Shown here: positions 6,047-21,014 of the stretch, in pieces | Numbering within the stretch: the stretch's first letter is position 1 | How the letters are laid out: every line of letters begins with the position of its first letter | Assembly: GCF_014656435.1 (NCBI RefSeq) | Contig: NZ_BNCK01000008.1 | Location: 1 to 64,000, forward strand | DNA: 64,000 nucleotides | From: Thalassotalea marina | GTDB taxonomy: Bacteria; Pseudomonadota; Gammaproteobacteria; Enterobacterales; Alteromonadaceae | Direction of reading: 5' to 3' | Program-made: the position numbers and the translations under genes | Notes under the pieces: generated by a model | What the model was told of the DNA's origin: nothing | What the model saw: the letters and a program-made list of their open reading frames with translations, nothing else | Databases searched by the model: none

Positions 6047-8887
6047 TTAAAACTTCATGTTCACGCCCAGGTTAAACACTCGACCGTAAGTACTTAAGAA
6101 ACGTACTTGCTCTCTGCGGTCAACATATGTCCAGTTACTTTCGTTAGTCATGTTGCGAATACTAAAGTTAACTGTCATGTTTTCGTTGACGTCGTAACTA
6201 GAGCTGAAATCTAACTGACCGTAGTCAACTTCCCAGCTTGCGCCACCCCATTCTTCTGGGTTGATCAGCATTTTGTTGCGCCAGTTGTACGCTATACGAG
6301 CTTGAATGCCGTCTTTTTCGTAGTATATAACTGCGTTATAAGAGTTTTTCGGCATGCGAATAAATGGAAGACCTTCTTTTTCCGGATCTTCATCTTTACT
6401 TTTCACGTAGGTATAGTTGAACTGAACACCAAAACCATCAAATGGCGCAGGAAGGATTTCAGTTAAAGCTTGTTGGTAAGCAATCTCTAAACCTTGTACG
6501 TCAGCACCATATTCGCCTGTAACATAGCTCTTCGTTCTAAAATCACGGCCATCAATCTTAGTAACACCTGTTTCGGCAAAGATAGGGTTAGTAGACTCAA
6601 TATCTTTATAGAAATACGCGGTTGTTAACGCTCCGTATTCAGAGAAGTACCACTCTAATGCAGTATCAAACTGGTTAGCGCGCATTGGCTCTAATCCAGG
6701 TGATGAAGCAGAGTATTCTTGCTTTGATAGGTTTACAGAACTCCACGCAGTTAAATAACCGATGTTTGGACGTGTTAAAACTTTTGCCGCGTTAAAACGA
6801 TAAACTAAATCTTCACGTAGGTTTAACTTGAAGTTAAGGCTAGGTAATACATCGGTGTAAGAATCTGTGTATGATACAGCTTCTTGGTATTGCGCTTGTT
6901 TACCTACAAATTGTAATACTTGTTCAATATTACCTTCGTCATCTTCTCTTTCTACATCTTGTAATTTTACTTTGTCGATGTTTAATGAGTAACCTGTACT
7001 TTTAACTTCAGTTTCAACAGCGCGAAGACCCAAGTTTAACGTGTAAGGTAGGTCAAAAATTTCATTTTCGATGTCAACTTCAACAAATGCTGCTGTTGTT
7101 GTTTCAGATAATGAGAATGAATCTTTTGGCTGAGGTGAACCTTTGATTTGCTCATTTGCTGCATCTTTAGAGATAGACTCATAAAAAGCGAAAAGCTTGT
7201 CGTAATCAAATCGTGCCCACGGCTCAGGGTGTTTACCCGCAACACCAGATAAGAAGTTGTCAAAGTTTGCATCTAACAATACTTCTTTTGGTAATCTGAA
7301 TAGGTTTAAGCCAAACATGTCTTCTGCAGAAGATAAATCTGGGTTGTAGTGCTTGTAACTATCTGATTTGAAGTAAGCACCACCGTTAGAGAACATTGAT
7401 GCGTTAGCAGAACGGAAGTTAGATCTGTCTTTAGTTTGTTTACCGTAGTGAACACCAAATCTTACCGTTGTAATGTAATCATGGTCTAATGCCCATTCAC
7501 CACCAAGACGAACTTCAGTGATTTCATCTTCAACTTCTTCACCTGAGTTGTAGCTGTAGTGAGCGCCAAAAGGAGCGTCAGATGTTAACGGCTCAGACAT
7601 AGTAATGTCTGGTAATAAATTGTTTGAAGATGCATCAATAGTGACATCTTTAACAAAGCCACGGGCAACAATAAAGCGGTTGTCACCACTGTTTTCGTTT
7701 TTAGTTGCCGAGTGTGAAACATCAGCTTCAAAAACTAATGCAGGAGAATAATACCAACGAGTGTTTAAACCCACTTGGAAAGCTTTTGTACGACGAGGTG
7801 TTGAAGAGTTAATTACTTCAGCCATTGCGCCATTACCTAACGTAAGCTTATTGACTAAGCCTTCATCATTAAAGCCTAAGTCGGTAACGTTAGGGATGCC
7901 AGGTGTCCATGATTCATCATAGGTAACAAAAGAAAGGGCATTTCGCGTACCGTCAGTGTCGTAAGACGAGTACAAGCTATCGAAAGCCATTTCGATTTTG
8001 TCGTTTGGCATCCACTGTAAAGCTAAGCTTGCGCCAATACGTTCACGGTTATCTTGCCAGTTATCGTAACGAACATAACCAGGAATAACAGAGCCGTACT
8101 CTTTATCGATAGTTTCGTCAAATTCGCCGTTGCCATCTACGTCTTGGCGAACTGAAATCCAGCTCTCGTTTCCTTCGTTATAGAAACCTTGGCCGTCATA
8201 GCGGTCAGTTCTTAATGTGCGTTCTGAATAAACGCCTGTGAAAAGTGCACCAAAAGTGCCATCAAAAAATGTGTCACTGATTAAAAATGATGCTTGAGGA
8301 TCAAACTCTTCTACACGATCTTCGTAAATACCTTTTACTGAACCGCTTAATGTAAAGCCGTCAAAATCTAGTGGGCGTCTGGTTTTAATATTGATAACTG
8401 AACCAATACCACCTTCTTGAGTACGTGCAACAGGTGATTTATATACATCAACCCCAGATAGTAGCTCAGAAGCAATTAAGTCGTAGTTAAAGTTACGGCT
8501 GTTGTGCTCTGATGCCATACGACGACCATTGATGGTAGCAACGTTGTAATCGCCACCTAAACCACGAACAATAACGTTTTGCCCTTCACCGCCATTACGT
8601 GTGATTGTGATGCCAGTTACACGTTGAAGTGCTTCTGCAATGTTTTGATCTGGAAATTTACCAATGTCTTCAGCAACGATAGCGTCGACAACGTTAACTG
8701 AGTTTTGTTTGATAAAAAGAGATTCTTTAATACTGTTCTTTAAGCCAGTTACCTGGATTACTTCAATTTTATCTTCAGTATCTTTTTTATCTTTATTTGA
8801 TGCTTGAGTATCTTGAGCTTGGGCAGCATAGCTGCACAAAACACTCGAAATGATCAAGCTTAATGTAGTTTTCTTGTGACTTTTCAC
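6047..8887 (-). CDS. TonB-dependent outer-membrane receptor for GalNAc-type glycans
   Basis: A 946-residue outer-membrane transporter. It has a signal peptide (cleavage after AAQA), a possible TonB box near IEVIQVTG, a plug domain at about residues 50-170 (IAEALQRVTGITITRNGGEG, then VIVRGLGGDYNVATING) and a 22-strand barrel ending in a terminal Phe (GVNMKF). It belongs to the large TonB-receptor class typical of marine sugar users. Its place in the Aga locus and the operator motif between it and the divergent agaR gene suggest uptake of GalNAc-containing oligosaccharides with TonB-ExbBD energy. The start is GTG 8887, preceded by AAAGGGGAA. A decayed tail of a related receptor lies downstream. 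Confidence 0.85.
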   Translation of the reverse strand: MKSHKKTTLSLIISSVLCSYAAQAQDTQASNKDKKDTEDKIEVIQVTGLKNSIKESLFIKQNSVNVVDAIVAEDIGKFPDQNIAEALQRVTGITITRNGGEGQNVIVRGLGGDYNVATINGRRMASEHNSRNFNYDLIASELLSGVDVYKSPVARTQEGGIGSVINIKTRRPLDFDGFTLSGSVKGIYEDRVEEFDPQASFLISDTFFDGTFGALFTGVYSERTLRTDRYDGQGFYNEGNESWISVRQDVDGNGEFDETIDKEYGSVIPGYVRYDNWQDNRERIGASLALQWMPNDKIEMAFDSLYSSYDTDGTRNALSFVTYDESWTPGIPNVTDLGFNDEGLVNKLTLGNGAMAEVINSSTPRRTKAFQVGLNTRWYYSPALVFEADVSHSATKNENSGDNRFIVARGFVKDVTIDASSNNLLPDITMSEPLTSDAPFGAHYSYNSGEEVEDEITEVRLGGEWALDHDYITTVRFGVHYGKQTKDRSNFRSANASMFSNGGAYFKSDSYKHYNPDLSSAEDMFGLNLFRLPKEVLLDANFDNFLSGVAGKHPEPWARFDYDKLFAFYESISKDAANEQIKGSPQPKDSFSLSETTTAAFVEVDIENEIFDLPYTLNLGLRAVETEVKSTGYSLNIDKVKLQDVEREDDEGNIEQVLQFVGKQAQYQEAVSYTDSYTDVLPSLNFKLNLREDLVYRFNAAKVLTRPNIGYLTAWSSVNLSKQEYSASSPGLEPMRANQFDTALEWYFSEYGALTTAYFYKDIESTNPIFAETGVTKIDGRDFRTKSYVTGEYGADVQGLEIAYQQALTEILPAPFDGFGVQFNYTYVKSKDEDPEKEGLPFIRMPKNSYNAVIYYEKDGIQARIAYNWRNKMLINPEEWGGASWEVDYGQLDFSSSYDVNENMTVNFSIRNMTNESNWTYVDRREQVRFLSTYGRVFNLGVNMKF

Positions 8888-9004: not shown

Positions 9005-9158
9005 AAACTACGAAGACTGCTATATTTATAGCTGGTTGATGAGTTAAGTGGTTGTAAATAAATGGTAAAATTAAAACGAAAGGGTGTTCGTAAAAAATGA
9101 TGAATTGAAAGGTATCGAAAGTGTGTTACTATCTAAGTAACAGTTTCAAGGAGTGTGT

Positions 9159-9920
9159 ATGAGAGCAATAGAGCGCAGGCATGAGATAGTGCAAGATACA
9201 TTGGCACATGGAAAAGTTGAAGTAGATCAATTAGTAGCGCGCTACGATGTATCTGCAGTGACGATAAGAGCCGACCTAAACTATTTAGCGAAAAAAAATT
9301 TACTGGTGAGAACACGTGGTGGCGCTGTCGCGAGTCATAGAATTCAACGAGAGCTGACCATTGACGAAAAGCATAACGCGCAAACAGAAGTAAAAAGGCG
9401 GTTAGCGGCTGCAGCGAAAAGTTTAATTAACGAAGGTGATGCACTAATTTTAGATTCAGGCTCAACGACAGCTGAAATTGCCAAAACACTTGGTGACTTA
9501 GAACATCTGGTGGTGATGACCAATGGTTTAAACGTTGCACAAAACTTATTGCAGCACGACGGCATAGAAGTGTTAATGACCGGTGGCATTTTACGAAAAA
9601 CATCACAATCGTTTTACGGTAGGCAAGCGGAAGACAGTATTGAACGTTATCACTTTAACAAGGTAATACTGGGCGTTGATGGCATTGATTTTAATAGTGG
9701 TTTAACAACCCACTTTGAATATGAAGCGATTCTAAATCGACTCATGTGTAACGTTGCTGGCACCGTTATCGCAGTTACTGATTCATCGAAGTTTAATCGA
9801 GCGGGCGTACATAAAATATGTGGCTTAGAGGATTTAGATGTATTGGTCACTGATGAGGGCGTGCCAGAGATGTTCGTTAAAGAAGTTGAAAAGCTTGGCG
9901 TTAAAGTCATTATCGCCTAG
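9159..9920 (+). CDS. agaR: DeoR-family transcriptional regulator (AgaR-like, copy 1)
   Basis: A 253-residue DeoR/GlpR-type regulator. The N-terminal helix-turn-helix (residues 1-58) starts MRAIERRHEIV and contains VSAVTIRADLNYL; the C-terminal sensor domain shows the family's DSGSTTAEIAK, MTNGLNVAQ and VTDSSKF segments, which bind sugar phosphates. ATG 9159 follows AAGGAG with 5-nt spacing, so an in-frame GTG at 9153 is unlikely. Probable repressor of the GalNAc genes, released by a phosphorylated GalNAc derivative. A close paralogue at 20244-21014 bounds the other end of the locus; which copy controls which promoter cannot be told. Confidence 0.85.
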   Translation: MRAIERRHEIVQDTLAHGKVEVDQLVARYDVSAVTIRADLNYLAKKNLLVRTRGGAVASHRIQRELTIDEKHNAQTEVKRRLAAAAKSLINEGDALILDSGSTTAEIAKTLGDLEHLVVMTNGLNVAQNLLQHDGIEVLMTGGILRKTSQSFYGRQAEDSIERYHFNKVILGVDGIDFNSGLTTHFEYEAILNRLMCNVAGTVIAVTDSSKFNRAGVHKICGLEDLDVLVTDEGVPEMFVKEVEKLGVKVIIA

Positions 9921-10092: not shown

Positions 10093-11550
10093 TTAAGAAA
10101 CGATGCCTAGAGGTTTACCTGTTTTCCAAGCACCACGTGTAAAGTCAGGAATTGTCTGACTGTTACTACGATCTGCAACTGACGCCATGCTCAGTGGGAA
10201 GATCACCGACCATGCAGCCGCGTCATAAACGTCTTGATCTAGTGGTTCATTGTTACGTAAACAGTGAACCATACGCCATAACATGATGAAGTCCATACCA
10301 CCGTGACCACCATTACGTACAGCTTCTTCACCCATTCTTGTCCATAATGGATGATCAAAATGTTTGTACCATTTTTCCATGTCGTAATCCCAACTATGGA
10401 AATTCGCAAGATGAGGTTTTCTTCCTTGTTCACCATTAGCTTTCCATTTAGCTAATGCTTCTTTATATTCGTTTTCGTAAATTGCTTTGATTTTTGGTGG
10501 TGCAGTTTCAAGCGCAATACGGTTAGGGAAGCCAGCAAAAGTACCATTAGTACCTTGAATTAAGTTATGTCTGCTGTACGGGCGAGGGCTCGTTGTATCA
10601 TGTTGAACCATGATAGAGCGACCTTTCACTGTTTTAATAATGCTAGTGTTCATGTCACCAGCAACATAATTTAGTGCGTTGCGTGAATGGTTTGCGTCAA
10701 ACTCACGTTTCGCGTAGGCTGCGCGACCAAGTGCAGGTGAACTCATCGACGTTACATAGTCAAAACGGTCACCACGGTTAATGTTCATGTATTGTGCAAC
10801 TGGGCCTAAACCATGTGTAGGGTATAGGTTACCGTTACGTTTAGTATGCCAGAATGTACGCCACGAACCCGTGCTGTGTTCAATTTCTTTCATTTGCCAA
10901 CGCAGTTCATGAATATAAGCAGCTTCAGCATGTAATAGGTCACCAAATAAACCTAAACGTGCCATGTTAAGCACCATCAGCTCATCACGACCATAGTTTA
11001 CGTTTTCCATCATCATGCAGTTTTTCTGCGTTCTTTCAGCTGTGTCAACTAACTGCCAACATTCTTCAACTGTTGTTGCCGCTGGTACTTCAACAAAGGC
11101 ATGTTTACCACTTTCCATGGTATCAACAGCCATTGGTGTGTGCCATTTCCATGGTGTTGAAATAATAACAATGTCGATGTCATCACGAGATAACATGTCA
11201 CGATATGCGTAATCAGAACCTGTGTAACGACCAGGTTTAGGTAAGCCCTTCTTTACTACGTAGTCGATTGACTTGTCTAACATTTCCGCATGTGTATCAC
11301 AAATTGCTTTAATTTCCACACCTTCGATTTGACAGAAATGTTTTACGTGACCGCTACCACGTTGGCCAACCCCAATAAAACCTACACGAACAATGTCTAA
11401 TTGGGTTTTCAAACCCATAACACTGCTGCCTTTAGCTTTTGGAATAAAACCTTGAGTGTTGTTACTGCTAGAAGCACAACCTGCAGCAACCGTAGCTGCA
11501 GAGACTGCTGCTGCAGACTTAAGAAACTTACGACGATCTATCGTTGACAT
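10093..11550 (-). CDS. Tat-exported GH109-like alpha-N-acetylgalactosaminidase (Gfo/Idh/MocA fold)
   Basis: A 485-residue protein of glycoside hydrolase family 109, which removes terminal alpha-linked GalNAc using a tightly bound NAD. A twin-arginine signal ([15 protein letters not shown]) ends in a lipobox-like AAGC, so the folded, cofactor-loaded enzyme is probably exported and membrane-anchored. The Rossmann motif is [13 protein letters not shown] (near residue 47), and family segments include [23 protein letters not shown] and [18 protein letters not shown] 11550 follows AGGGGA; an upstream in-frame ATG (11640) would bury the Tat motif. It has its own promoter and a candidate operator (11647-11663), divergent from agaZ. 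Other linkage specificities are possible. Confidence 0.85.
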
Positions 11551-11646
11551 GATATCCCCTTTTTTAATTAGTTTTGCGTTGAGCACACTATTAATCGTTG
11601 TTGTTGCACATTTATACCACCAAAAATGCAAACAAGGCAATAAAAG

Positions 11647-11663
11647 CTTTCGAAAACTTTCAT
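11647..11663. promoter_or_regulatory. Candidate AgaR operator before the GH109-like gene
   Basis: CTTTCGAAA overlaps an inverted ATGAAAGTT half (plus-strand CTTTCGAAAACTTTCAT), about 97 bp upstream of the minus-strand start codon. It has the same two halves as the other candidate Aga operators but closer together. Confidence 0.6.
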
Positions 11664-11735: not shown

Positions 11736-11775
11736 CTTTCGAATAATTTTTAGCTTGTGAAAGTAAATGAAAGTT
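11736..11775. promoter_or_regulatory. Candidate AgaR operator cluster before agaZ
   Basis: CTTTCGAA (11736-11743), GAAAG (11759-11763) and ATGAAAGTT (11767-11775) lie 65-105 bp upstream of the agaZ start. They repeat the motifs seen at 8979, 11647 and 20026, with wider spacing. Confidence 0.55.
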
Positions 11776-11840: not shown

Positions 11841-13145
11841 ATGAAATATTTATTATCTAAGATTCAGGAAAATAGAGAGACAGGTCAAGGTGGTATCTAC
11901 TCTGTATGTTGTGCACACCCATTAGTTATTAAGGCTGCGATGATGCAGGCCGTTAAAGATGGGCAGTCTGTGCTAATCGAATCGACAGCAAACCAAGTAA
12001 ATCAATTTGGCGGTTATACAGGGATGAAGCCTATTGATTTTGTTAATTTTGTTTATGATATTGCTGATGAGCTAGATTTCCCTCGTGAACGCATTATTTT
12101 AGGTGGTGATCATCTAGGCCCTGTTTGTTGGGTAGATAAAGGTGCGGAAGAGGCGATTGAGCTTTCAAAAGATTTAATTGCAGAATATGTGAAAGCTGGT
12201 TTTAAAAAGATTCACTTAGATACAAGCATGGCATGTTTTGGTGATCCACAGGCAGTGCCAGAAGAAGAAATTGCATATCGTGCTAGTGTGTTGTGTAAAG
12301 TTGCTGAACAAACTGCGATTGAAACGTTTGGCTATTCAGATTTACTTTATGTTGTTGGCACTGAAGTACCGGTACCTGGCGGTGAAACAGAAGCAATTGA
12401 AAGCGTCGAAGTGACATCAACGGCAAGTGTCGATCTTACCCTTAAGCATCATTATGATGCGTTTAAAGCGCTAGGCTTAGAAAAAGCGATTTCTCGTATT
12501 ATTGCTATTGTTGTGCAGCCTGGGGTTGAATTCGACCATACACAAGTGGTGGATTATCAGCCAGAAGAAGCTAAAGCTTTAGCTAAGCATATTGAAAAAA
12601 TTGATAATATTGTATTTGAAGCGCATTCAACTGATTATCAAAAGAATGATGCATATAAGGCATTGGTTTCAGATCATTTCGCTATTTTGAAAGTTGGCCC
12701 TCAACTGACGTTTGCATTACGCGAGGGGCTTTTTGCCTTGTCCTATATCGAAGAATATTTAGTTGCACCGGAAAAGCGTTCATATTTACGCGACGTGTGC
12801 GAACAAACTATGTTGGCAGAGCCTGCAAACTGGAAAAAATATTACCAAGTACCAGCAAGCTTAGAGCCATTCTATCGCCATTATAGTTTTAGCGATCGTA
12901 TTCGTTATTATTGGGCAAATGATAGAGTTAACCAAGCAGTTAAACGCATGATGCAAAACCTTTCAGAGGTTGATATTCCACTACCGTTAGTGAGTCAATT
13001 TTTGCCGGAACAATTTCAAGCCATTAGAAATGGCAAATTATCGCTTGATGCACAAGCGTTAGTTATTGATAAAATAATGCAGGTGACTTCGGTATATTCA
13101 AATGCCTGTCAAACAAACAATGCTCAAGAGAAAGCTATCGCATGA
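11841..13145 (+). CDS. agaZ: D-tagatose-1,6-bisphosphate aldolase subunit GatZ/KbaZ-like (AgaZ)
   Basis: A 434-residue member of the GatZ/KbaZ family, needed for full activity and stability of tagatose-bisphosphate aldolase, which splits tagatose-1,6-bisphosphate to dihydroxyacetone phosphate and glyceraldehyde-3-phosphate. Typical segments are an N-terminal GGIYSVCCAHPLVIKAA, the ESTANQVNQFGGYTGM stretch and GGDHLGPVCW. Length matches the family (about 420-430). It heads the operon, and its stop overlaps agaS by 4 bp. No catalytic AgaY/KbaY partner and no tagatose-6-phosphate kinase gene is in the window, so those steps must be encoded elsewhere. Confidence 0.88.
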   Translation: MKYLLSKIQENRETGQGGIYSVCCAHPLVIKAAMMQAVKDGQSVLIESTANQVNQFGGYTGMKPIDFVNFVYDIADELDFPRERIILGGDHLGPVCWVDKGAEEAIELSKDLIAEYVKAGFKKIHLDTSMACFGDPQAVPEEEIAYRASVLCKVAEQTAIETFGYSDLLYVVGTEVPVPGGETEAIESVEVTSTASVDLTLKHHYDAFKALGLEKAISRIIAIVVQPGVEFDHTQVVDYQPEEAKALAKHIEKIDNIVFEAHSTDYQKNDAYKALVSDHFAILKVGPQLTFALREGLFALSYIEEYLVAPEKRSYLRDVCEQTMLAEPANWKKYYQVPASLEPFYRHYSFSDRIRYYWANDRVNQAVKRMMQNLSEVDIPLPLVSQFLPEQFQAIRNGKLSLDAQALVIDKIMQVTSVYSNACQTNNAQEKAIA

Positions 13146-14272
13146 CACATTATTTAACTTTTTCAGAACAAGAACTGAAGCAAAATAACGCCTATTGGAC
13201 AGCAAAAGAGATTGCTCAACAACCTCAAGCCTGGCAACAAGTTTTGCACTCAGTTGAGCAACAACGTGAAGCGTTAGACAGCTTTTTAGCACCGATATTA
13301 GCGCAACCAAAACTTCGTATTATTTATACCGGTGCAGGGACTTCTGCTTATGTTGGTGATGCGGTAGCACCTGAAATCGCCAAGATTACGGGTCGTACCA
13401 GTGTTGCAATTAGCACGACTAATATCGTGAGTAACCCAGAGAACTATTTGTTAGCTGAATATCCTACCTTGGTTATTTCCTACGCTAGATCAGGTAATAG
13501 TCCTGAAAGCTTAGCGGCAGTAGAGTTAGCGGACAGCTTGGTCGATAATTGCTATCACTTGATTATCACTTGTAACCCTGAAGGGGAATTAGCGACAGGA
13601 TCTAATGGCAAAGACAACCGTTATACCTTGTTAATGCCACAGCAAACGCTTGATCAAAGTTTTGCGATGACCAGCAGCTTTACCTCAATGTTAGTTGCAA
13701 CTATGTGTGTGTTTTCAACTGACTCTAGTCAGTTACTTAGTGCTATTAAAACCAGTGATGTATTGTTGGAAAATCAACTTGAAGAGATTAAACAGCAGGC
13801 AGAAAATATGCCTGAGCGAGTAGTTTTCTTAGGTTCTGGTCCATTACTTGGTATAGCCAAAGAAGCGGCGCTTAAATGTTTAGAGTTAACAGCTGGCCAA
13901 GTATTTAGTTACTGTGAAAGCCCACTGGGTTTTAGACATGGACCAAAATCACTAGTTAATGGTAATACTGATATTTTTGTCATGATGTCAAATGACGAAT
14001 ATACACGAAAATATGACAGCGATTTGCTTAGTGAGTTGCAGCGTGATGGTATTGCCAAGTCAATTTATGTTATTGATCAATCTGCTGGCGAATTAGCGAC
14101 TAAAACCGATGATATTTGGGCATCGTTACCGTATATTGTGCACTGTCAGTTGTTGTCATTTTACAAGTCACTACAATTGTCATTAACGCCTGATAACCCG
14201 TGTCCGTCAGGCGAAGTAAATCGCGTCGTTCAAGGTGTGACAATTTATCCGCACCCAAACAGCAGAGTTTAG
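13142..14272 (+). CDS. agaS: Galactosamine-6-phosphate deaminase/isomerase, SIS domain (AgaS)
   Basis: A 376-residue protein with two sugar-isomerase (SIS) domains. The first has IIYTGAGTSAYVGD and SYARSGNSPES, the second VFLGSGPLLGIAKEAALK and ESPLGFRHGPKS. AgaS turns galactosamine-6-phosphate into tagatose-6-phosphate and ammonia. ATG overlaps the agaZ stop (ATGA), indicating translational coupling. Length agrees with characterised AgaS proteins (about 384). The sugar operon context separates it from glucosamine-6-phosphate synthase relatives, which have an extra glutaminase domain. Confidence 0.9.
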   Translation: MTHYLTFSEQELKQNNAYWTAKEIAQQPQAWQQVLHSVEQQREALDSFLAPILAQPKLRIIYTGAGTSAYVGDAVAPEIAKITGRTSVAISTTNIVSNPENYLLAEYPTLVISYARSGNSPESLAAVELADSLVDNCYHLIITCNPEGELATGSNGKDNRYTLLMPQQTLDQSFAMTSSFTSMLVATMCVFSTDSSQLLSAIKTSDVLLENQLEEIKQQAENMPERVVFLGSGPLLGIAKEAALKCLELTAGQVFSYCESPLGFRHGPKSLVNGNTDIFVMMSNDEYTRKYDSDLLSELQRDGIAKSIYVIDQSAGELATKTDDIWASLPYIVHCQLLSFYKSLQLSLTPDNPCPSGEVNRVVQGVTIYPHPNSRV

Positions 14273-14301: not shown

Positions 14302-15222
14302 ATGACAATGTTGACCTACGGTTTGGATATTGGCGGGACTAAAATTGAAACCGCCATTTTTAATGAAAACTTAGAGCAAGTTGATTGCTGGCGTGTAAAA
14401 ACGCCAGTGAATGATTACCAACAATTTTTATCTACAGTGATCGCACAGATTGAGGCGGCTGATGCTAAAAGTCATAGCAAAGGCAGTATTGGTATTGGCA
14501 TGCCTGGATTGATTGATCATCAGGGCAAAGTGCTATCAGCCAATATTCCCTGTGCCACAGGTAAATTAATCAAACCGGATTTAGAATTAGCGCTTAAACG
14601 CAGTGTTGTCATTCACAACGACACTCGCTGTTTTGCTTTATCTGAAGCATGGCATGGCGCTGGTCAAGACTTTAGCCGCGTGTTTTGCGCTATTATCGGT
14701 ACCGGCGCTGCGGGCGGTATGTGTGTTGATGGTAAGTTGCAAAAAACCCAATTGGGTGTTGCTGGCGAATATGGTCATTTACCTTTGTCAGCAGTGTTGC
14801 AGCAAAAATATAAACTGCCTGTTTTGCAATGTGGCTGTGGTTTAATGGGCTGTGTAGAGTCCTACATTTCAGGCCCTGGTATCAGCAAGTTGTATCAGCA
14901 TTTTGCCAATGAACAGATCAGTGCCAAAGAATGGCATTTGCGTCTTGTGCAAGGTGAGCATTATGCGCAAGTGGTTTTATCTTGTTACCTTGATATTTTA
15001 GGTGAAGTGTTTGCCACACTGGTCAAACTAATGGAGCCCGAAGCCATAGTTTTAGGTGGCGGTTTATCTTTGGTTGATGCAATTGTCGACGGTTTACCTG
15101 AATATATTGCCAGACATATGTTCCCAGGCTTTCAATCACCTAAGGTGTTAAGAGCAAAGTATGGTGATTCAAGTGGTGTGCGCGGCGCGGCGATTTTAGG
15201 AGCTAATCATGCAATTTGCTGA
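14302..15222 (+). CDS. agaK: N-acetylgalactosamine kinase, ROK family (AgaK)
   Basis: A 306-residue ROK sugar kinase. Visible are the ATP phosphate loop (YGLDIGGTKIETAIF), the catalytic Asp in VIHNDTRC, the glycine-rich IGTGAAGGMCVDGK loop, and the zinc site CGCGLMGCVESY. It phosphorylates free GalNAc brought in by the permease; this replaces the PTS found in enteric bacteria. It follows agaS by 29 bp and overlaps agaA by 14 bp. GalNAc rather than GlcNAc specificity is inferred from the operon. Confidence 0.88.
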   Translation: MTMLTYGLDIGGTKIETAIFNENLEQVDCWRVKTPVNDYQQFLSTVIAQIEAADAKSHSKGSIGIGMPGLIDHQGKVLSANIPCATGKLIKPDLELALKRSVVIHNDTRCFALSEAWHGAGQDFSRVFCAIIGTGAAGGMCVDGKLQKTQLGVAGEYGHLPLSAVLQQKYKLPVLQCGCGLMGCVESYISGPGISKLYQHFANEQISAKEWHLRLVQGEHYAQVVLSCYLDILGEVFATLVKLMEPEAIVLGGGLSLVDAIVDGLPEYIARHMFPGFQSPKVLRAKYGDSSGVRGAAILGANHAIC

Positions 15223-16396
15223 GTGTTTTTCCATTCGCGCGGGTGAAATATATACCGAGCAGGGAATACTTAAAGATCACTGGTTGTTGGTAGAACAGCA
15301 AAAGATTGTTGCCATTGGCCGTGAACCACACATCGACTGGCCACAATTTGATTTTCCATCCCTGAAAATGGTGCCAGGGATGATTGATTTGCATATTCAT
15401 GGACGTGATGGTTTTGACATCATGGACGGAACCGATGAAGCGATAGACGCGATTTCAGCGTCTTTGGCTAAATTTGGTGTCACTGGCTTTTTAGGTACTA
15501 CCGTCACGGCTAAATGGGATGTCACCCTTGAAGCTTATCAGGCTATTGGCCGAGCAAGAGAACGAAAGTTACCTGGCGCAAAAATTCTTGGTGCATATAA
15601 CGAAGGTTTGTTTTTCAGCGAGGCGCAAAAAGGAGCTCATAATGAAAAGTTCTTTTTACCATTAACGCAAGAGCGAATTGACGCCATTATTGACGCCAGT
15701 AAAGGCTCACTAAAAATGTTTGCTTTAGCACCTGAGCTTGAAGATAACATGGCGATGATCCCTTATTTAGTGGAAAAAAACGTTGTGCCTATGTTAGGCC
15801 ATACCAATGCAAATCATGAACAAACGAAAGAGGCGCTGCGCTTAGGTGCTTGTGGTGGTGTTCATGTATTTAATGGCATGAAAGGTATTCATCATAGAGA
15901 TCCTGGCTGTGCTGGTACCTTGTTGATGGATAAAAAGGCACTTGTGGAAGTGATTGCCGATGGTATTCATTTACATCCGCTGATTATGCAAATGGTATTA
16001 CAGCTTAAAGGCGAAGAAAAAGTGGCTTTGATCAGTGATTGCATCAATGCCGGTGGCCTTGCCGATGGTCAATATCGATTAGGTGAACTTGATATTGTTG
16101 TTGAACACGGGGTTGCTCGTACACTCACCAACTCTTTGGCGGGTAGCACGTTAACGCTCAATAAAGCGGTTAAAAATATGGTAGAGCTTGCTGATGTTAG
16201 CTTTGCTCGTGCAATTAATATGGCAACTAGTTCACCAGCCAAGCACATTCAACTTCAAGAGTCTGTTGGCAGTATCGCCGTAGGTAAATTTGCTGACTTA
16301 GTGTTAATGGCTGAAGATTGTAGCGTACATGGCACTATCATTGATGGGAAACTTTGTTATCATTCGCCACAACTCAGTACTTTTATCAGCGAATAA
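15209..16396 (+). CDS. agaA: N-acetylgalactosamine-6-phosphate deacetylase (AgaA/NagA family)
   Basis: A 395-residue amidohydrolase that removes acetate from GalNAc-6-phosphate to give galactosamine-6-phosphate for AgaS. The metal-site features are present: DLHIHGRDGFDIMDG (HxH, about residue 60), LGHTNANHEQ, DGIHLHP and the catalytic Asp in LISDCINAGG. A C-terminal GSIAVGKFADLV segment is typical of amidohydrolases. ATG 15209 overlaps the end of agaK. GlcNAc-6-phosphate deacetylases are close relatives; the pathway context favours GalNAc. Confidence 0.88.
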   Translation: MQFAECFSIRAGEIYTEQGILKDHWLLVEQQKIVAIGREPHIDWPQFDFPSLKMVPGMIDLHIHGRDGFDIMDGTDEAIDAISASLAKFGVTGFLGTTVTAKWDVTLEAYQAIGRARERKLPGAKILGAYNEGLFFSEAQKGAHNEKFFLPLTQERIDAIIDASKGSLKMFALAPELEDNMAMIPYLVEKNVVPMLGHTNANHEQTKEALRLGACGGVHVFNGMKGIHHRDPGCAGTLLMDKKALVEVIADGIHLHPLIMQMVLQLKGEEKVALISDCINAGGLADGQYRLGELDIVVEHGVARTLTNSLAGSTLTLNKAVKNMVELADVSFARAINMATSSPAKHIQLQESVGSIAVGKFADLVLMAEDCSVHGTIIDGKLCYHSPQLSTFISE

Positions 16397-16408: not shown

Positions 16409-18094
16409 ATGCAGTGTGACGGTGCTTTTGATGCCATAGTGATCGGAAGTGGCATCAGTGGCGGTTGGGCAGCCAAAGAATTAACAGAGCAGGGTTTTAA
16501 AGTGGCCGTGATTGAACGCGGCCGCATGATAGAACATCAAAAAGATTATCACACCGCCGATAAAGAAAATTGGCAACTTCCTCTTGCTGGCCAAGCCAGC
16601 GCCAAAGACAAGCTACGCAAAGCTAAGCAAGGCCGAACAGGTTATGCGTTAAATCAAGATATCAAACATTGGTTTGTTGATGATATCGATCACCCTTATC
16701 AAGAACAGCAACGATTTGATTGGATCAGAGGTTATCATGTTGGCGGTCGCTCAATTACTTGGGGACGTCAGTGTTTACGCTTTAGTGATTTAGACTTTTC
16801 TGCCAACAAACAAGATGGTCATGGTATCGACTGGCCTGTTCGTTACCAAGATATTGCACCTTGGTACGATAAAGTTGAACGTTTTATTGGCGTGATGGGA
16901 GAGGCATTAGCTTTACCTCAATTACCTGATGGCCCTTATTTGCCAGCTATGCCGTTAAATTGTGTAGAAAAAGATTTAAGACAAACCTTAAAAACTAAAT
17001 TTGACCGTCACCTAACTATTGGGCGAGTGGCTCATTTAACCACTCATGAAGGCTTTGAAGGTCGAGCACAGTGTAGTTATCGAAATCGTTGTATGAGAGG
17101 TTGCCCAACCGGTAGTTATTTTAGCGCTAATGCGTCAACCTTACCTGCGGCTACCAAAACTGGGAATTTGACGTTAATCACCGATACTATAGCCAGTGAA
17201 ATTGTTTACGATGATAAAACTGGTTTGGCTCAAGGGGTCAAAACCATAGGTCGCTTGGATAAAAAGCAAAAATATTATCGAGCTCGTGTCATTTTTTGTT
17301 GTGCATCGACAGTAGCCAGCACGGCATTATTGTTACAAAGCACCAGTAAAAGATTCCCTCAAGGTTTAGGCAACGATAGTGGTACGTTGGGGCACTACTT
17401 GATGGACCACCATTTTCGTATCGGCGCTTCTGGCATAGCGGATAAATTTGCTCAAAGTTTTGATATAGGTCGTAGGCCGGTTGGCTTTCACATTCCTAGG
17501 TTTCGAAATGTAGAAAAGCAGCAACAAAGTTTTGTTCGAGGTTACGGTTATCAAGGTTATGCAACACGAGGTGATTGGCGACGAGGCTTTAAAGAGCTAG
17601 AGTTTGGCCAAGACTACGTTGAATCACTGTTTGAACCCGGCCCATGGCGAGTCACTTTGATTGGCTTTGGTGAATGTTTACCTTACAAAGAAAACAAACT
17701 CACTCTAGACCATCAAAAGCTTGATCAATGGGGGTTACCTCAAGTGAATTTTGACTGCACGTTTAAACGCAATGAGCAGTTAATGCGCAACGATATGAAA
17801 CAGCAAGCGATGAAGATGTTAACGGCTGCTGGCTATAAAGATGTTACCCCTTATGATTCAGGATCAGCCCCTGGTCAAGCGATTCATGAAATGGGTACGG
17901 CGAGAATGGGGCATAGTCCAAAAGACTCAATGGTCAATTCAAACAACCAGCTGCATCTAGTTGCCAATGTATATGTGACTGACGGCGCTTTTATGACCTC
18001 GTCAGGCTATCAAAACCCATCGCTTACCTATATGGCGTTTACCGCTCGAGCTGCACATCATGCAGGCAAATTATTGTCTCAAGGAGTGTTTTAG
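16409..18094 (+). CDS. GMC-family FAD-dependent oxidoreductase, large subunit
   Basis: A 561-residue flavoprotein of the glucose-methanol-choline family. The FAD-binding motif is at the N-terminus (VIGSGISGGWAAKEL), and the C-terminal domain has EMGTARMGHSP and the active-site segment SGYQNPSLTYMAFTARAAHH with the expected Asn. Cys-rich segments (CSYRNRCMRGCPTG) suggest a metal or Fe-S site as in sugar dehydrogenase large subunits. It has no signal peptide; its 1-bp-overlapping partner has a Tat signal, so hitch-hiker export is likely. It follows agaA by 12 bp in the same operon. It probably oxidises a sugar hydroxyl, perhaps at C3, and passes electrons to the respiratory chain. Substrate not shown by sequence. 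Confidence 0.8.
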   Translation: MQCDGAFDAIVIGSGISGGWAAKELTEQGFKVAVIERGRMIEHQKDYHTADKENWQLPLAGQASAKDKLRKAKQGRTGYALNQDIKHWFVDDIDHPYQEQQRFDWIRGYHVGGRSITWGRQCLRFSDLDFSANKQDGHGIDWPVRYQDIAPWYDKVERFIGVMGEALALPQLPDGPYLPAMPLNCVEKDLRQTLKTKFDRHLTIGRVAHLTTHEGFEGRAQCSYRNRCMRGCPTGSYFSANASTLPAATKTGNLTLITDTIASEIVYDDKTGLAQGVKTIGRLDKKQKYYRARVIFCCASTVASTALLLQSTSKRFPQGLGNDSGTLGHYLMDHHFRIGASGIADKFAQSFDIGRRPVGFHIPRFRNVEKQQQSFVRGYGYQGYATRGDWRRGFKELEFGQDYVESLFEPGPWRVTLIGFGECLPYKENKLTLDHQKLDQWGLPQVNFDCTFKRNEQLMRNDMKQQAMKMLTAAGYKDVTPYDSGSAPGQAIHEMGTARMGHSPKDSMVNSNNQLHLVANVYVTDGAFMTSSGYQNPSLTYMAFTARAAHHAGKLLSQGVF

Positions 18095-18543
18095 TGGACA
18101 GACGACAGTTTATCCAGTCATTGTTAGCAACTACTGGTGCAGTGGTAAGCCCAGGCGCTTTATCAACGATGTGGCAACAAGCACAGCAGCATAACGTTGA
18201 AAACAATATGCAGGTGCTAGAAGTGCTGCAACCTGCGTTAGTGCCTGTACCTGAGCGCTTTCAACAGCACAACATAAACTTAGTGCCTTTTATTTCGTTA
18301 ATGATTGAGCAAAGTTTGTTGAGTGATGAAAGAATTGCATTAGAAAGAGCGCTTTATTCGTTTCAAAAAAACATACATGGCTTAACACCACAAGAATTAC
18401 ATAGTGAAATTACTAAAGCGATGCAAAATGAAAGATTTGCAGACATGTTAGTCAAGATACGAGATTTTGGCTTAATTGGGCTTTTTTCACATCCTCAAGT
18501 AGCACTCGAATTACCAAGCACAATGGGATATCAACCCTGTTAA
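18094..18543 (+). CDS. Tat-signal small subunit of a sugar dehydrogenase (gluconate 2-dehydrogenase subunit 3-like)
   Basis: A 149-residue protein with a clear twin-arginine signal (MDRRQFIQSLLATTGAVV) and an alpha-helical remainder without further motifs. GTG 18094 overlaps the last base of the GMC gene's stop, after AAGGAGTG. Small Tat-signal partners of this size and position export GMC dehydrogenases, as in gluconate 2-dehydrogenase and glucoside 3-dehydrogenase. No cytochrome c subunit follows, so the electron acceptor is unknown. The family call rests on context and the Tat motif. Confidence 0.65.
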   Translation: MDRRQFIQSLLATTGAVVSPGALSTMWQQAQQHNVENNMQVLEVLQPALVPVPERFQQHNINLVPFISLMIEQSLLSDERIALERALYSFQKNIHGLTPQELHSEITKAMQNERFADMLVKIRDFGLIGLFSHPQVALELPSTMGYQPC

Positions 18544-18577
18544 ATTTTTGTCTTATTTGATGGCAACAAAAAATGCT

Positions 18578-18612
18578 CAATAAAAAACGGACATGAAGTC
18601 CGTTTTTTATTG
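18578..18612. terminator. Bidirectional terminator between the aga operon and agaP
   Basis: A perfect 15-bp stem (CAATAAAAAACGGAC / GTCCGTTTTTTATTG) with a 5-nt loop gives a T-run on both strands. It lies between convergent genes. Confidence 0.92.
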
Positions 18613-18635
18613 AATAATTTGAGGGTTACTAAGCG

Positions 18636-19955
18636 CTAAAGCTTGGCTTTTTTATGTCCCCAAATTGCAAAGTAAGCGATAAATGCATAACAAGGGAACA
18701 TCACAGCGTAAGCTAACTGGCTGTCAATAGAGTCGGCGAGAACACCGTAAATAACAGGAATGATAGCACCACCTGAAATCCCCATAATTAGCCAAGCTGA
18801 ACCTTTTGCCGTGTAGCTGCCTAAATCTTTTAGTGCCATCGGCCATACAGCTGGCCACACAAGAGCATTAGAAAAGCCCAGTAACGCAACAAACAACACA
18901 CTGTTAGGCAAGGCTGGAATATCTAACCAGAAAAATAAGCTGTTCCATATTGAGGCGTCAGTCGTAGAGGATAATATGATCAACATGGTAAAGATCATAC
19001 CTAATAGTGCAGACGCTTTTAACGCGGTCTCTTGCGAAATATATTTTGGAATTAGCACCATACCTAACACATAGGCAACCACCATAAACGCCATGGTGTA
19101 AGAGGTGAGCTGGGCAAAGTTTTGCACCCCCATTTCTTTTCCGTATAAGCCTATGGTGTCACCAGCAACGACTTCAGCACCAACATATAAAAACAAGGTA
19201 ACAACCCCTAAGATCAAATGCGGGAAGTCTTTGATTGATTTATTGCTTGATGCCGTGTCGTTTTGCTCATTGATATTGGGCTCAGGCAACGGAGAAAACT
19301 TGATAAATGCTGCAAGTATTACAAGTGATACCGCCATTAATAGGTATGGGAAAATCAGTCGTTCAGACAATTCCTGTAACTGTGCGTGTTTGTCAACTTC
19401 ACTTAACAAGGCAATTTTTTCTGGGGTAAATTGGTCCATGTCGGCAAGTACCCAAGCGGTAAAAACCAAAGGTGCAATAACACCGGCAGATTTATTCAAA
19501 ATACCCATAATACTGATGCGAACAGCGGCAGTTTCACGGCGACCAATCAATACAATAAACGGGTTAGTGGCCGTTTGTAATAAAGTTAAACCACTTCCTA
19601 AGATAAACAATGCAACAAGAAAAACGCTGTAAAGTTTAGTTTGAGCTGCAGGAATAAAGATTAAGGCACCGATTGCCATGACAAACAAGCCAATAACAAT
19701 ACCTGTTTTATAACCTGTTTTTTCTAGTACGCGAGCAGCAGGTAACGCCATTAATGTGTAGGCGATATAAAACACTAAAGTGACTAAATAAGCTTGTGTA
19801 TGATTTAACTCACAAGCAATTTGCAAAAAAGGTATTAGAGAGCCGTTTAGCCAAGTAACAAAGCCAAACATAAAAAACAACCCACCTATGATGAACATAG
19901 GGAGTAATACACTGTTATTACTGCTATTTTCTTGATTTATTGTTGCAGTAGTCAT
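18636..19955 (-). CDS. agaP: FucP/NagP-family MFS sugar permease (probable GalNAc transporter)
   Basis: A 439-residue major-facilitator protein of the fucose-galactose-glucose:proton symporter group with about 12 membrane helices. The family N-terminus is visible (GGLFFMFGFVTWLNGSLIPF), then QTATNPFIVLIG around residue 127. Proteins of this group import free sugars across the inner membrane; here GalNAc is the likely substrate, matching the presence of a kinase instead of a PTS. It converges on the aga operon and has a candidate operator 70-95 bp upstream of its ATG. NagP-type GlcNAc specificity is the alternative. Confidence 0.82.
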   Translation of the reverse strand: MTTATINQENSSNNSVLLPMFIIGGLFFMFGFVTWLNGSLIPFLQIACELNHTQAYLVTLVFYIAYTLMALPAARVLEKTGYKTGIVIGLFVMAIGALIFIPAAQTKLYSVFLVALFILGSGLTLLQTATNPFIVLIGRRETAAVRISIMGILNKSAGVIAPLVFTAWVLADMDQFTPEKIALLSEVDKHAQLQELSERLIFPYLLMAVSLVILAAFIKFSPLPEPNINEQNDTASSNKSIKDFPHLILGVVTLFLYVGAEVVAGDTIGLYGKEMGVQNFAQLTSYTMAFMVVAYVLGMVLIPKYISQETALKASALLGMIFTMLIILSSTTDASIWNSLFFWLDIPALPNSVLFVALLGFSNALVWPAVWPMALKDLGSYTAKGSAWLIMGISGGAIIPVIYGVLADSIDSQLAYAVMFPCYAFIAYFAIWGHKKAKL

Positions 19956-20050: not shown

Positions 20051-20243
20051 TGATTTTGTTGAAAGTGATAAATGTCATGCTAAAGCGCAGGTAAATAAGT
20101 TTTCCCTTTAAAAAAGTATGTTTGCGTTTTAACATGCATCTATTGAAGGCGAATTTTATTCGGATTTTTAACTTCCCAATGTTGTTCTAGGGAATATAAA
20201 TCGAATTCGCCTATCGCGATAATTATTATAAGTGAAAATAAAA

Positions 20244-21014
20244 ATGCTAAGTACTATTGAACGTAGACATGAAATTGTCATGATGACTGAGCAACTCGGC
20301 TCTGTATCGGTTAAAGCCCTCGCTGAAAAATTTGAAATTTCTACTGTTACTATTCGTCACGATTTAAATGAACTCAATAAGCTTGGGCTTATTGTACGCT
20401 CAAGAGGTGGAGCGGTGGCGAGCAACCGTTTAACCAAAGAGCTTTCGATTAAAGAAAAACATAAAAAAAATCACAAAATTAAAAAGCTCATTGGCCGTGC
20501 TGTTGCTGATCTTATCCAAGATGGCGACAGTGTGATAATAGACTCTGGTACCACAACTGAAGAAGTTGCGCAGAGTTTATCAGGGAAAAAAGGCATTACG
20601 ATTTTAACCAATGGTTTAAATATCGCTAACGAACTGGCAGCCAATGATGAATGTGAGTTGATCATCTCAGGTGGTTTTCTTCGCCGAAAATCAATGTCAT
20701 TTTACGGCACACAAGCAGAAGAGAAGCTTAAATATTATAACTTCAATAAAGTGGTGCTAGGGGTAGATGGTATCGATTTACATCGAGGTATTAGTACTCA
20801 TTACGAGCCAGAAGCAAATTTTAATCGCGCCATGTGTGGTGCAGCAGAGCAAGTAATTGTTGCGACAGATTCATCTAAATTTGGTCGTCGTTCGTTGCAT
20901 ACAATCATTAACTTTGAAGATATTGACGTATTAGTGACCGACAGTGGCATACCGCAGGAAGTTGTTAATGAGTTGGATGCATTAAATGTGATGTTGATCA
21001 TTGTTGATAAATAA
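20244..21014 (+). CDS. agaR: DeoR-family transcriptional regulator (AgaR-like, copy 2)
   Basis: A 256-residue paralogue of the regulator at 9159-9920, alike along its whole length: shared N-terminal IERRHEIV, helix-turn-helix ISTVTIRHDLNEL, RSRGGAVASNR, sensor-domain DSGTTTEEVAQ and LTNGLNIA, and ATDSSKFGRR. ATG 20244 is chosen to match the paralogue; a GTG at 20232 would add four residues, and neither has a strong ribosome binding site. It lies divergent from agaP at the right edge of the locus. Either copy could be the GalNAc repressor; the second may sense another intermediate or be redundant. Confidence 0.82.
   Translation: MLSTIERRHEIVMMTEQLGSVSVKALAEKFEISTVTIRHDLNELNKLGLIVRSRGGAVASNRLTKELSIKEKHKKNHKIKKLIGRAVADLIQDGDSVIIDSGTTTEEVAQSLSGKKGITILTNGLNIANELAANDECELIISGGFLRRKSMSFYGTQAEEKLKYYNFNKVVLGVDGIDLHRGISTHYEPEANFNRAMCGAAEQVIVATDSSKFGRRSLHTIINFEDIDVLVTDSGIPQEVVNELDALNVMLIIVDK

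What the first reader, a model, noticed from the sequence alone, without database searches (positions are those of the whole stretch)
16409..18543. GMC dehydrogenase plus Tat small subunit embedded in a GalNAc operon with a Tat-exported GH109-like enzyme
Known Aga operons of Shewanella type contain kinase, deacetylase, deaminase and permease genes but not, to my knowledge, this oxidoreductase pair. GH109 enzymes work through transient C3 oxidation by NAD. A periplasmic FAD dehydrogenase beside one suggests an oxidoreductive route, for example 3-keto-glycoside formation before cleavage, or scavenging of a sugar variant that hydrolysis alone cannot handle. The operon could be a combined hydrolytic/oxidative GalNAc-glycan system.
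Basis: partly seen in the sequence, partly recalled or inferred. Interest (0 to 1): 0.7.

Follow-up and report, generated by a model that had tools for sequence, protein, structure and literature searches.

The report
Sugar dehydrogenase in a GalNAc operon
Some bacteria of the Alteromonas family carry, as the last two genes of their operon for eating the sugar N-acetylgalactosamine, an exported flavin dehydrogenase related to enzymes thought to oxidise sugars at carbon 3, which suggests a still untested oxidative step in breaking down GalNAc-containing glycans.

Summary
GMC (16409-18094) and a small Tat-signal gene (18094-18543) end the operon agaZ-agaS-agaK-agaA-GMC-small; AgaR-type boxes lie in the agaZ/GH109 gap, and GH109 is a genuine family member. 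The pair is in 4 of 4 same-genus genomes surveyed and in 9 of 52 agaS loci (295 family genomes examined; 5 genera): a real but accessory module. The 9 GMC proteins form one clade and keep the His493/Asn536 pair and the three Cys of a [3Fe-4S]-type site. They are nested among relatives several of which neighbour 3-keto-disaccharide hydrolase, TIM-barrel and Gfo/Idh genes, the parts of the known 3-keto-glycoside route. No PF06439 or PF01261 gene lies in the nine Aga loci, but 8 and 9 of the 9 genomes encode them elsewhere; GH109 is beside the pair in 8 of 9. Best reading: a periplasmic, probably C3-type sugar dehydrogenase recruited for GalNAc-containing substrates. Regiospecificity, substrate and any link to GH109 are inferred. 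GH109 occurs without GMC in 18 of 26 Aga loci, and no GH109 change clearly goes with GMC. The window's small subunit is short and divergent; only profile comparison and orthologues tie it to Gluconate_2-dh3.

The parts
16409..18094 (+). GMC-family FAD dehydrogenase, catalytic subunit; Cys222/228/232 (3Fe-4S-type site), His493/Asn536 catalytic pair
18094..18543 (+). small subunit with Tat-like motif (DRRQFIQ), divergent Gluconate_2-dh3-type 'hitchhiker', 149 aa; GTG start overlaps the GMC stop
10093..11550 (-). GH109 alpha-N-acetylgalactosaminidase-like protein; Tat-like signal RRKFLK (TAT models just below cut-off) followed by a lipobox-like AAGC; GGHGG at residue 414
   Evidence: start taken at ATG 11550; one search lists an upstream TTG at 11640
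11841..13145 (+). agaZ (GatZ/KbaZ family; TIGR02810 above cut-off)
13142..14272 (+). agaS (SIS domain; AgaS-family model is best hit, below its cut-off)
14302..15222 (+). agaK (ROK-family sugar kinase)
15209..16396 (+). agaA (NagA-type deacetylase; TIGR00221 above cut-off)
18636..19955 (-). NagP-type MFS permease, convergent
   Evidence: NF046060 below its cut-off; TIGR01272 above
20232..21014 (+). agaR (DeoR family), second copy
   Evidence: NF040755 above cut-off
9153..9920 (+). agaR (DeoR family), first copy
   Evidence: NF040755 above cut-off
11647..11661 (+). AgaR-type box CTTTC-N5-CTTTC in the GH109/agaZ gap
11759..11773 (-). AgaR-type box, second, GH109/agaZ gap
9107..9121 (-). AgaR-type box between the TonB-dependent receptor gene and agaR1
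18576..18614 (-). terminator-like hairpin (17 pairs) between the small subunit gene and nagP
   Evidence: pattern match; 14 such sites in the region, 8.1 expected
6047..8887 (-). TonB-dependent receptor, putative outer-membrane glycan importer
4385..5746 (-). DUF5077-DUF3472 lipoprotein, recurrent neighbour of GH109/TonB receptor in other Aga loci

Best explanation
The two genes encode a periplasmic dehydrogenase of the FAD plus [3Fe-4S] type. The catalytic GMC subunit has no signal peptide of its own and is exported folded, bound to the small Tat-signal subunit ('hitchhiker'). Substrate hydride goes to FAD, and electrons pass through the iron-sulphur site to a respiratory acceptor not encoded here. 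The gene descends from glycoside-3-dehydrogenase-like enzymes of 3-keto-glycoside loci and entered the AgaR-controlled GalNAc operon as one gene lineage. There it most likely oxidises C3-OH of GalNAc, or of a sugar linked to it, in the imported glycan, making the glycosidic bond labile to elimination. Shown here: gene identity, operon membership, conservation, ancestry of the gene, conserved catalytic and cluster residues. Inferred: C3 regiospecificity, GalNAc-containing substrate, export by hitchhiking, electron acceptor. Open: who finishes the 3-keto product - GH109 next door, PF06439/PF01261 enzymes encoded elsewhere in the genome, or spontaneous elimination. Rough odds: sugar dehydrogenase of the hitchhiker type 0.9; C3 rather than C1/C2 attack 0.65; GalNAc-containing substrate 0.6.
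For: Operon: gaps of 29 bp or less, or overlaps, from agaZ to the small gene, and AgaR-type boxes in the agaZ/GH109 gap. Conservation: same order in 4 of 4 same-genus genomes; GMC in 9 of 52 agaS loci. The 9 GMC proteins at 65% identity or more among 295 family genomes (list sorted by E-value and cut far below them) all lie with their midpoint 3.5-3.9 kb from that of agaS. Selection: GMC dN/dS 0.063 between two same-genus species, like agaZSKA (0.036-0.064). Ancestry: the 9 are one clade (SH-aLRT 100) in a set of 13 (96) with L143, L144, L146 and one Bacteroidetes row; L143 and L144 have PF06439 3-keto-disaccharide hydrolase next door. More distant relatives, such as the genome's own C1 paralogue, sit with Gfo/Idh, PF01261 TIM-barrel and MFS genes, the gene kinds of the Agrobacterium pathway in PMC10628242 (passages). 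C222/C228/C232 in 103 of 103, H493 in 102, N536 in 101 of 103 GMC rows, matching BcGDH Cys212/218/222 and its His/Asn pair (PMC6719666 passages). Fold search: best hits fructose dehydrogenase and BcGDH. Small subunit: hhalign 99.9% to a Gluconate_2-dh3-type set. Pocket: 17 positions fixed in the 9 and rare elsewhere, 4 of them within 520-545 around N536, among them Tyr534 (0 of 94 others).
Against: No characterised glycoside-3-dehydrogenase sequence was in the tree, so C3 is inferred from the neighbours of related genes; the nearest solved relatives attack other carbons (glucose C1; fructose C5, recalled). No PF06439 or PF01261 gene in the nine Aga loci. No CxxCH cytochrome subunit near. 18 of 26 GH109-bearing Aga loci lack the pair. 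On the AgaZ+AgaS tree the carriers are not one clade (4 changes; AU p 8e-56, quick tree with several long branches), so the pair was lost or exchanged repeatedly. The window's small subunit is 149 aa against 171-209 aa in the other seven rows of A1, has no Pfam match, its gene evolves fast in the genus (dN/dS 0.25) and its model finds no solved fold. The box motif was derived partly from the window, so its enrichment there (3 against 0.11 expected) is not an independent test. The active-site enrichment is weak (p 0.027 uncorrected, segments chosen after seeing the positions; control clades 0/30, 1/22, 2/6, 0/6).
Confidence: 0.45

Rival explanations
1. C1 oxidation: the complex is an aldose dehydrogenase that turns free GalNAc (or another hexose set free from the glycan) into the lactone/onate in the periplasm, for quick electron supply or overflow, as gluconate and glucose dehydrogenase complexes do.
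For: Closest solved relatives are the fructose dehydrogenase and Burkholderia glucose dehydrogenase complexes; BcGDH oxidises the first hydroxyl of glucose. No PF06439 or PF01261 gene in the Aga-GMC loci.
Against: Only 19-22% identity to these; the nearest relatives by tree include genes in 3-keto loci. No gene for handling an onate was recognised in the operon; oxidising GalNAc at C1 would withdraw it from AgaK (inference).
Confidence: 0.2
2. The dehydrogenase serves a different sugar of the same glycan, for example terminal galactose or glucose residues, and is in the Aga operon because these sugars are met together; the 3-keto product is cleaved spontaneously or by 3-keto enzymes encoded elsewhere in the genome.
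For: Neighbours of related Aga-GMC loci point to complex O-glycan-like substrates: GH2 in the 4 other same-genus loci (not in the window's), M60 peptidase in G066, GH20 in G260. 8 of the 9 carrier genomes have a PF06439 gene above cut-off and 9 of 9 a PF01261 gene, away from the Aga locus. A FAD-dependent glycoside oxidoreductase has a broad glycone range and its 3-keto product can break down spontaneously (PMC4650693, abstract and passages).
Against: In the window's genome the one PF06439 gene sits beside its own GMC pair, so it may serve that one alone; G260 has the Aga GMC but no PF06439. Clade-specific residues near N536 hint at a changed substrate, weakly.
Confidence: 0.2
3. A co-inherited bystander: the pair was inserted at the end of the operon and kept for a function unrelated to GalNAc.
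For: Missing from 43 of 52 agaS loci; patchy on the operon tree. One locus (L142) has 270 bp with 17-bp inverted ends between agaA and GMC, so tight spacing is not universal.
Against: All 9 of this clade found among 295 family genomes are in Aga loci; same end-of-operon position in 5 genera; purifying selection.
Confidence: 0.12

Closest known systems
LacABC-type lactose 3-dehydrogenase plus DUF1080/PF06439 3-keto hydrolase (Caulobacter; PMC9007349, passages seen)
   Same: Periplasmic sugar dehydrogenase with separate 3-keto handling; several relatives of the window's GMC sit next to PF06439 genes
   Different: No PF06439 gene and no third subunit recognised in the Aga loci; sits in a GalNAc operon. 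No Lac sequence was compared here
Agrobacterium glycoside pathway: GMC GlycDH, O-glycoside eliminase, hydratase, Gfo reductase (PMC10628242, passages seen); FAD-GO of Rhizobium (PMC4650693, abstract and passages seen)
   Same: GMC flavoenzyme, His catalytic residue; loci of more distant relatives carry PF01261 and Gfo/Idh genes
   Different: Aga-GMC loci lack PF01261 genes and a separate Gfo reductase; only GH109, itself Gfo/Idh-fold, is there
BcGDH and fructose dehydrogenase hitchhiker complexes (6a2u, 8xcm)
   Same: GMC fold, three-Cys cluster motif, His/Asn pair, small Tat-signal partner
   Different: About 20% identity; no cytochrome subunit gene recognised; sugar unknown
Bacteroides thetaiotaomicron BT4240-4250 locus (PMC11992087, passages seen)
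   Same: GH109, GalNAc kinase, GH2 and M60 peptidase in one GalNAc/O-glycan locus; GH2 or M60 also flank some Aga-GMC loci
   Different: The word oxidoreductase does not occur in that paper's main text, and the genes named in the passages include no GMC dehydrogenase
Shewanella Aga pathway (PMC2996990, passages and table seen)
   Same: agaK, agaA-II, agaS, permease, TonB receptor
   Different: The table lists an auxiliary gene agaO whose nature is not given in the passages seen; I could not tell whether it is GH109-like or GMC

Membership tests
GMC oxidoreductase | GMC N and C domains, FAD-binding motif, His/Asn (or His/His) catalytic pair | tested here: met
   PF00732 and PF05199 above cut-off; G13-S-G-x-x-G-G motif, H493, N536
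FAD/3Fe-4S hitchhiker dehydrogenase complex (BcGDH type) | C-x5-C-x3-C cluster motif in the catalytic subunit | tested here: met
   C222, C228, C232 in 103 of 103 rows; alignment to fructose dehydrogenase
FAD/3Fe-4S hitchhiker dehydrogenase complex (BcGDH type) | small subunit of the Gluconate_2-dh3 family (PF13618) with Tat signal | tested here: inconclusive
   Window protein: no PF13618 match, missed by the PF13618 search of its genome; orthologues L118 6e-12 and L142 7e-8 match; profile-profile 99.9%; no solved fold match
FAD/3Fe-4S hitchhiker dehydrogenase complex (BcGDH type) | cytochrome c electron-transfer subunit in the locus | tested here: not met
   Among the non-overlapping ORFs of at least 80 aa taken from the 64-kb window, CxxCH occurs in one, a 670-aa protein at 25979 far from the operon
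glycoside 3-dehydrogenase (LacABC/GlycDH/FAD-GO type) | oxidation of C3-OH of a glycoside | not testable with these tools
   needs an assay
glycoside 3-dehydrogenase (LacABC/GlycDH/FAD-GO type) | locus with 3-keto-processing enzymes (PF06439, PF01261 eliminase/hydratase, Gfo reductase) | tested here: not met
   none in the nine Aga-GMC loci except GH109; present elsewhere in 8 of 9 (PF06439) and 9 of 9 (PF01261) of these genomes; met in several related loci
glycoside 3-dehydrogenase (LacABC/GlycDH/FAD-GO type) | position in the family tree with characterised members | tested here: inconclusive
   clade nested among relatives of 3-keto loci, but no characterised sequence was in the tree
GH109 | Gfo/Idh NAD domain, GH109 C-terminal domain, GGHGG loop | tested here: met
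   PF01408, PF21252 above cut-off; 6t2b E 2.2e-143; GGHGG at 414
Aga (GalNAc) catabolic operon | kinase, deacetylase, AgaS, AgaZ, permease, AgaR regulator together | tested here: met
   (AgaS and NagP models best hit but below cut-off; kinase by PF00480); AgaR-type boxes

The most novel reading that the evidence does not exclude
A split oxidative deglycosylation: the GMC complex, driven by the respiratory chain, makes 3-keto-GalNAc glycosides in the periplasm, and GH109, which normally makes and consumes the same 3-keto intermediate with its bound NAD, takes them up in its NADH form and completes elimination, hydration and reduction. The pair would let GH109 be re-primed, or let the cell open GalNAc linkages that GH109 cannot oxidise itself, in place of the eliminase-hydratase-reductase set of ordinary 3-keto loci.
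Probability: 0.12. Interest if true: 0.75.

Novelty: new variant of a known kind. Interest (0 to 1): 0.5.

Why it matters
Oxidative (3-keto) glycan breakdown is described for glucosides and lactose; a conserved case wired into a GalNAc operon would extend it to amino-sugar glycans and offers a testable link between a respiratory flavoenzyme and a NAD-dependent GH109 glycosidase. Even the modest reading gives a defined two-protein complex and 9 related sequences for substrate tests.

Tried and rejected
Bystander hypothesis tested by survey: not favoured, because the 9 members found lie in Aga loci. Search for GH109 changes that go with the GMC: 7 positions fixed in 8 GMC-bearing loci and rare in 19 others; five lie in or next to an insertion that 16 of the 19 lack; at four of the seven, GMC-less G126 has the same residue; two (Ala367, Ile422) are shared by none of the 19; nothing points to the catalytic GGHGG loop (the G260 row was left out). 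Whole-genome box search: 18 sites in 4.87 Mb, 3 of them here; the tool's reversed-pattern control is uninformative because the pattern reads the same backwards. Of the 15 other sites I looked at 6: four lie inside ORFs, two between ORFs, one of these upstream of a peptidase-S9 lipoprotein gene; I judged the rest of the neighbours only by the start of their translations. Foldseek of the small subunit: nothing at E 0.001 or better. PDB profile searches: three weak Rieske matches to the signal region for the paralogue set, none for the Aga set. Literature: two wanted papers are not held; the rows listed by searches (judged by title and abstract start) show no paper on a flavin dehydrogenase in a GalNAc operon; the library is open-licence only.

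Known weak points: the tally printed (GMC 8, GH109 25, both 7) leaves out the window through a parsing slip; one search gives 26 GH109 and 8 both, GMC being 9. Several agaS loci are on short contigs (G217, G099, G059, G160), where absence of neighbours is not proven. The GMC tree used 75 of 103 sequences (every second one of the 'other' loci among L038-L117 was dropped). Its label 'other' underestimates 3-keto neighbours: L128 has PF06439.
Full report
What is there. The operon reads agaZ 11841-13145, agaS 13142-14272, agaK 14302-15222, agaA 15209-16396, GMC 16409-18094, small 18094-18543. A NagP-type permease (18636-19955, minus strand) converges on it, with a 17-pair terminator-like hairpin at 18576-18614 between them. 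The small gene starts with GTG, whose first G is the last base of the GMC stop codon, with AAGGAG just upstream, so the two look translationally coupled.

GH109. The divergent gene at 10093-11550 carries PF01408 and PF21252 and matches Akkermansia GH109 6t2b at 2.2e-143 and the structure 2ixa at 1.2e-80. It has the GGHGG loop, which a title in the reference list seen names as the home of the GH109 acid-base residue. Its N-terminus reads [20 protein letters not shown], a Tat-like signal with a lipobox-like end (TAT models just below cut-off), so it may be a Tat-exported lipoprotein.

Regulation. Promoter regions of ten Aga loci are enriched in CTTTC words, and of 16 CTTTC pairs at most 24 bp apart, 12 are spaced by 10 bp (some of these genomes are close relatives). 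In the window, CTTTC-N5-CTTTC occurs 3 times against 0.11 expected, in the GH109/agaZ and TonB-receptor/agaR1 gaps; the motif was drawn partly from these same gaps, so this is a description rather than an independent test. That it is the AgaR operator is inferred from the two AgaR genes in the window and from recalled similarity to the E. coli AgaR site.

Survey. Of 295 family genomes, 51 have agaS at E 1e-60 or better (52 places). GMC proteins at 65% identity or more occur in 9 genomes, each with its midpoint 3.5-3.9 kb from that of agaS. In 52 loci (the window and 51 fetched), GMC is in 9, GH109 in 26 and both in 8; 18 have GH109 without GMC. The ninth GMC locus, G260, has GMC after agaA but its GH109 about 50 kb away. 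The gap from agaA to GMC is 6-26 bp in 8 of 9 loci; the ninth (L142) has 270 bp with 17-bp inverted ends, readable as a small mobile element. No relative of 65% or more was met outside the family: a sample of 394 genomes of the order gave 5 with a match at E 1e-180, own genome included, all in the family; of 80 loci kept from the genome collection (89 relatives found) only Lacimicrobium has agaS and agaZ.

Ancestry. In a tree of 75 GMC proteins the 9 Aga ones are one clade (SH-aLRT 100). They group with L143, L144, L146 and one Bacteroidetes row (set of 13, SH-aLRT 96). L143 and L144 lie beside PF06439 3-keto-disaccharide hydrolase genes; L146 has none that I found. Loci of more distant relatives, including the window genome's own paralogue at C1, carry Gfo/Idh, PF01261 TIM-barrel and MFS genes, the gene kinds of the oxidation-elimination-hydration-reduction route described for Agrobacterium (PMC10628242, passages). 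Of the 103 GMC loci labelled by nearby genes, 9 are Aga, 14 have a 3-keto hydrolase, 20 have Gfo, TIM-barrel or MFS neighbours and 60 have none recognised, so the 3-keto link is seen for part of the family only. L144 is notable: GMC, small subunit and PF06439 next to, but convergent with, a NagP-NagA-SIS-kinase-GH20 cluster (SIS and kinase read by eye). On a tree of AgaZ plus AgaS the GMC carriers need 4 changes and one clade is rejected (p 8e-56). So the gene is one lineage but has been lost or exchanged between operons, and is for example missing in G126 and G308.

Function at residue level. The three cluster cysteines are in 103 of 103 sequences, His493 in 102, Asn536 in 101. BcGDH uses the same spacing for a 3Fe-4S cluster and has a His/Asn pair (PMC6719666, passages). 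The AlphaFold model (mean pLDDT 75.5, under 50 around 111-122, 492-514 and 526-536, that is at the active site) matches fructose dehydrogenase and BcGDH best. Seventeen positions are fixed in the 9 Aga proteins and rare in 94 others; Tyr534, two residues before Asn536, occurs in 0 of 94, and His361 stands where 91 of 94 have Tyr. Four of 17 fall near Asn536 (p 0.027, uncorrected, segments chosen afterwards), against 0/30, 1/22, 2/6 and 0/6 in four control clades. This hints at a retuned pocket and no more. GMC is under purifying selection in the genus (dN/dS 0.063).

Small subunit. Its family is only indirectly assured. The window protein has no Pfam match and is missed by the PF13618 search of its own genome, is 149 aa long, and resembles its orthologues at 16-26%. 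Two orthologues match PF13618, and the profile of the eight aligns with the Gluconate_2-dh3-type set at 99.9%. The model is nearly all helix (pLDDT 81 for the best of five, 52-59 for the rest) without a solved match. dN/dS between two other species of the genus is 0.25: fast, but still constrained.

Mechanism. Most likely the complex is carried out by Tat on the small subunit's signal and oxidises a secondary hydroxyl, probably C3, of a GalNAc-containing substrate. What follows is open. No PF06439 or PF01261 gene lies in the nine loci (nearest: 31 kb away in G112); only GH109 itself answers the Gfo/Idh query, in 7 of the 8 other loci. But 8 of the 9 genomes have a PF06439 gene above cut-off and 9 of 9 a PF01261 gene at other places, so a 3-keto product could be finished by them. 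GH4 enzymes do oxidation, elimination, hydration and reduction in one site, and GH109 is held to work the same way (recalled), so it could finish a 3-keto product in its NADH form. Spontaneous breakdown is also on record for a related flavoenzyme (PMC4650693). Against coupling stand the 18 GH109 loci without GMC and the lack of GH109 changes that clearly follow the GMC. The neighbours GH2 (4 of 4 other same-genus loci, not the window's), M60 peptidase (G066) and GH20 (G260) suggest O-glycan-like substrates, much like the GH2-GH109-M60-kinase set of Bacteroides (PMC11992087, passages).

Verdict. A real, conserved, accessory module: known enzyme kind, new setting.

Noticed in passing
L144:8871-19136: GMC dehydrogenase, small subunit and PF06439 3-keto hydrolase convergent with a NagP-NagA-SIS-kinase-GH20 cluster: a possible GlcNAc counterpart of the finding
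   Followed up: partly
window 4385-5746: DUF5077-DUF3472 lipoprotein that recurs beside GH109 and the TonB receptor in many Aga loci; function unknown, possibly a GalNAc-glycan binding or cleaving protein
   Followed up: partly
window 9153-9920 and 20232-21014: two AgaR paralogues flank the Aga region, each above the AgaR model cut-off; among the loci only G126 clearly shows two as well
   Followed up: no
L142:10820-11089: 270-bp stretch with 17-bp inverted ends between agaA and GMC in G112, looks like a small non-coding mobile element inserted in the operon
   Followed up: no
L138:17643-19640: M60 (enhancin-like) peptidase with a ricin-type lectin domain beside GH109, as in mucin O-glycoprotein loci
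   Followed up: no
L053:1531 and 9884: a Saprospiraceae contig with a GH109 (44%) about 8 kb from a 53% GMC relative: a possible independent pairing
   Followed up: no
window 18094-18543: small subunit is the fastest-evolving gene of the operon in the genus (dN/dS 0.25) while its partner is strongly conserved (0.063)
   Followed up: partly
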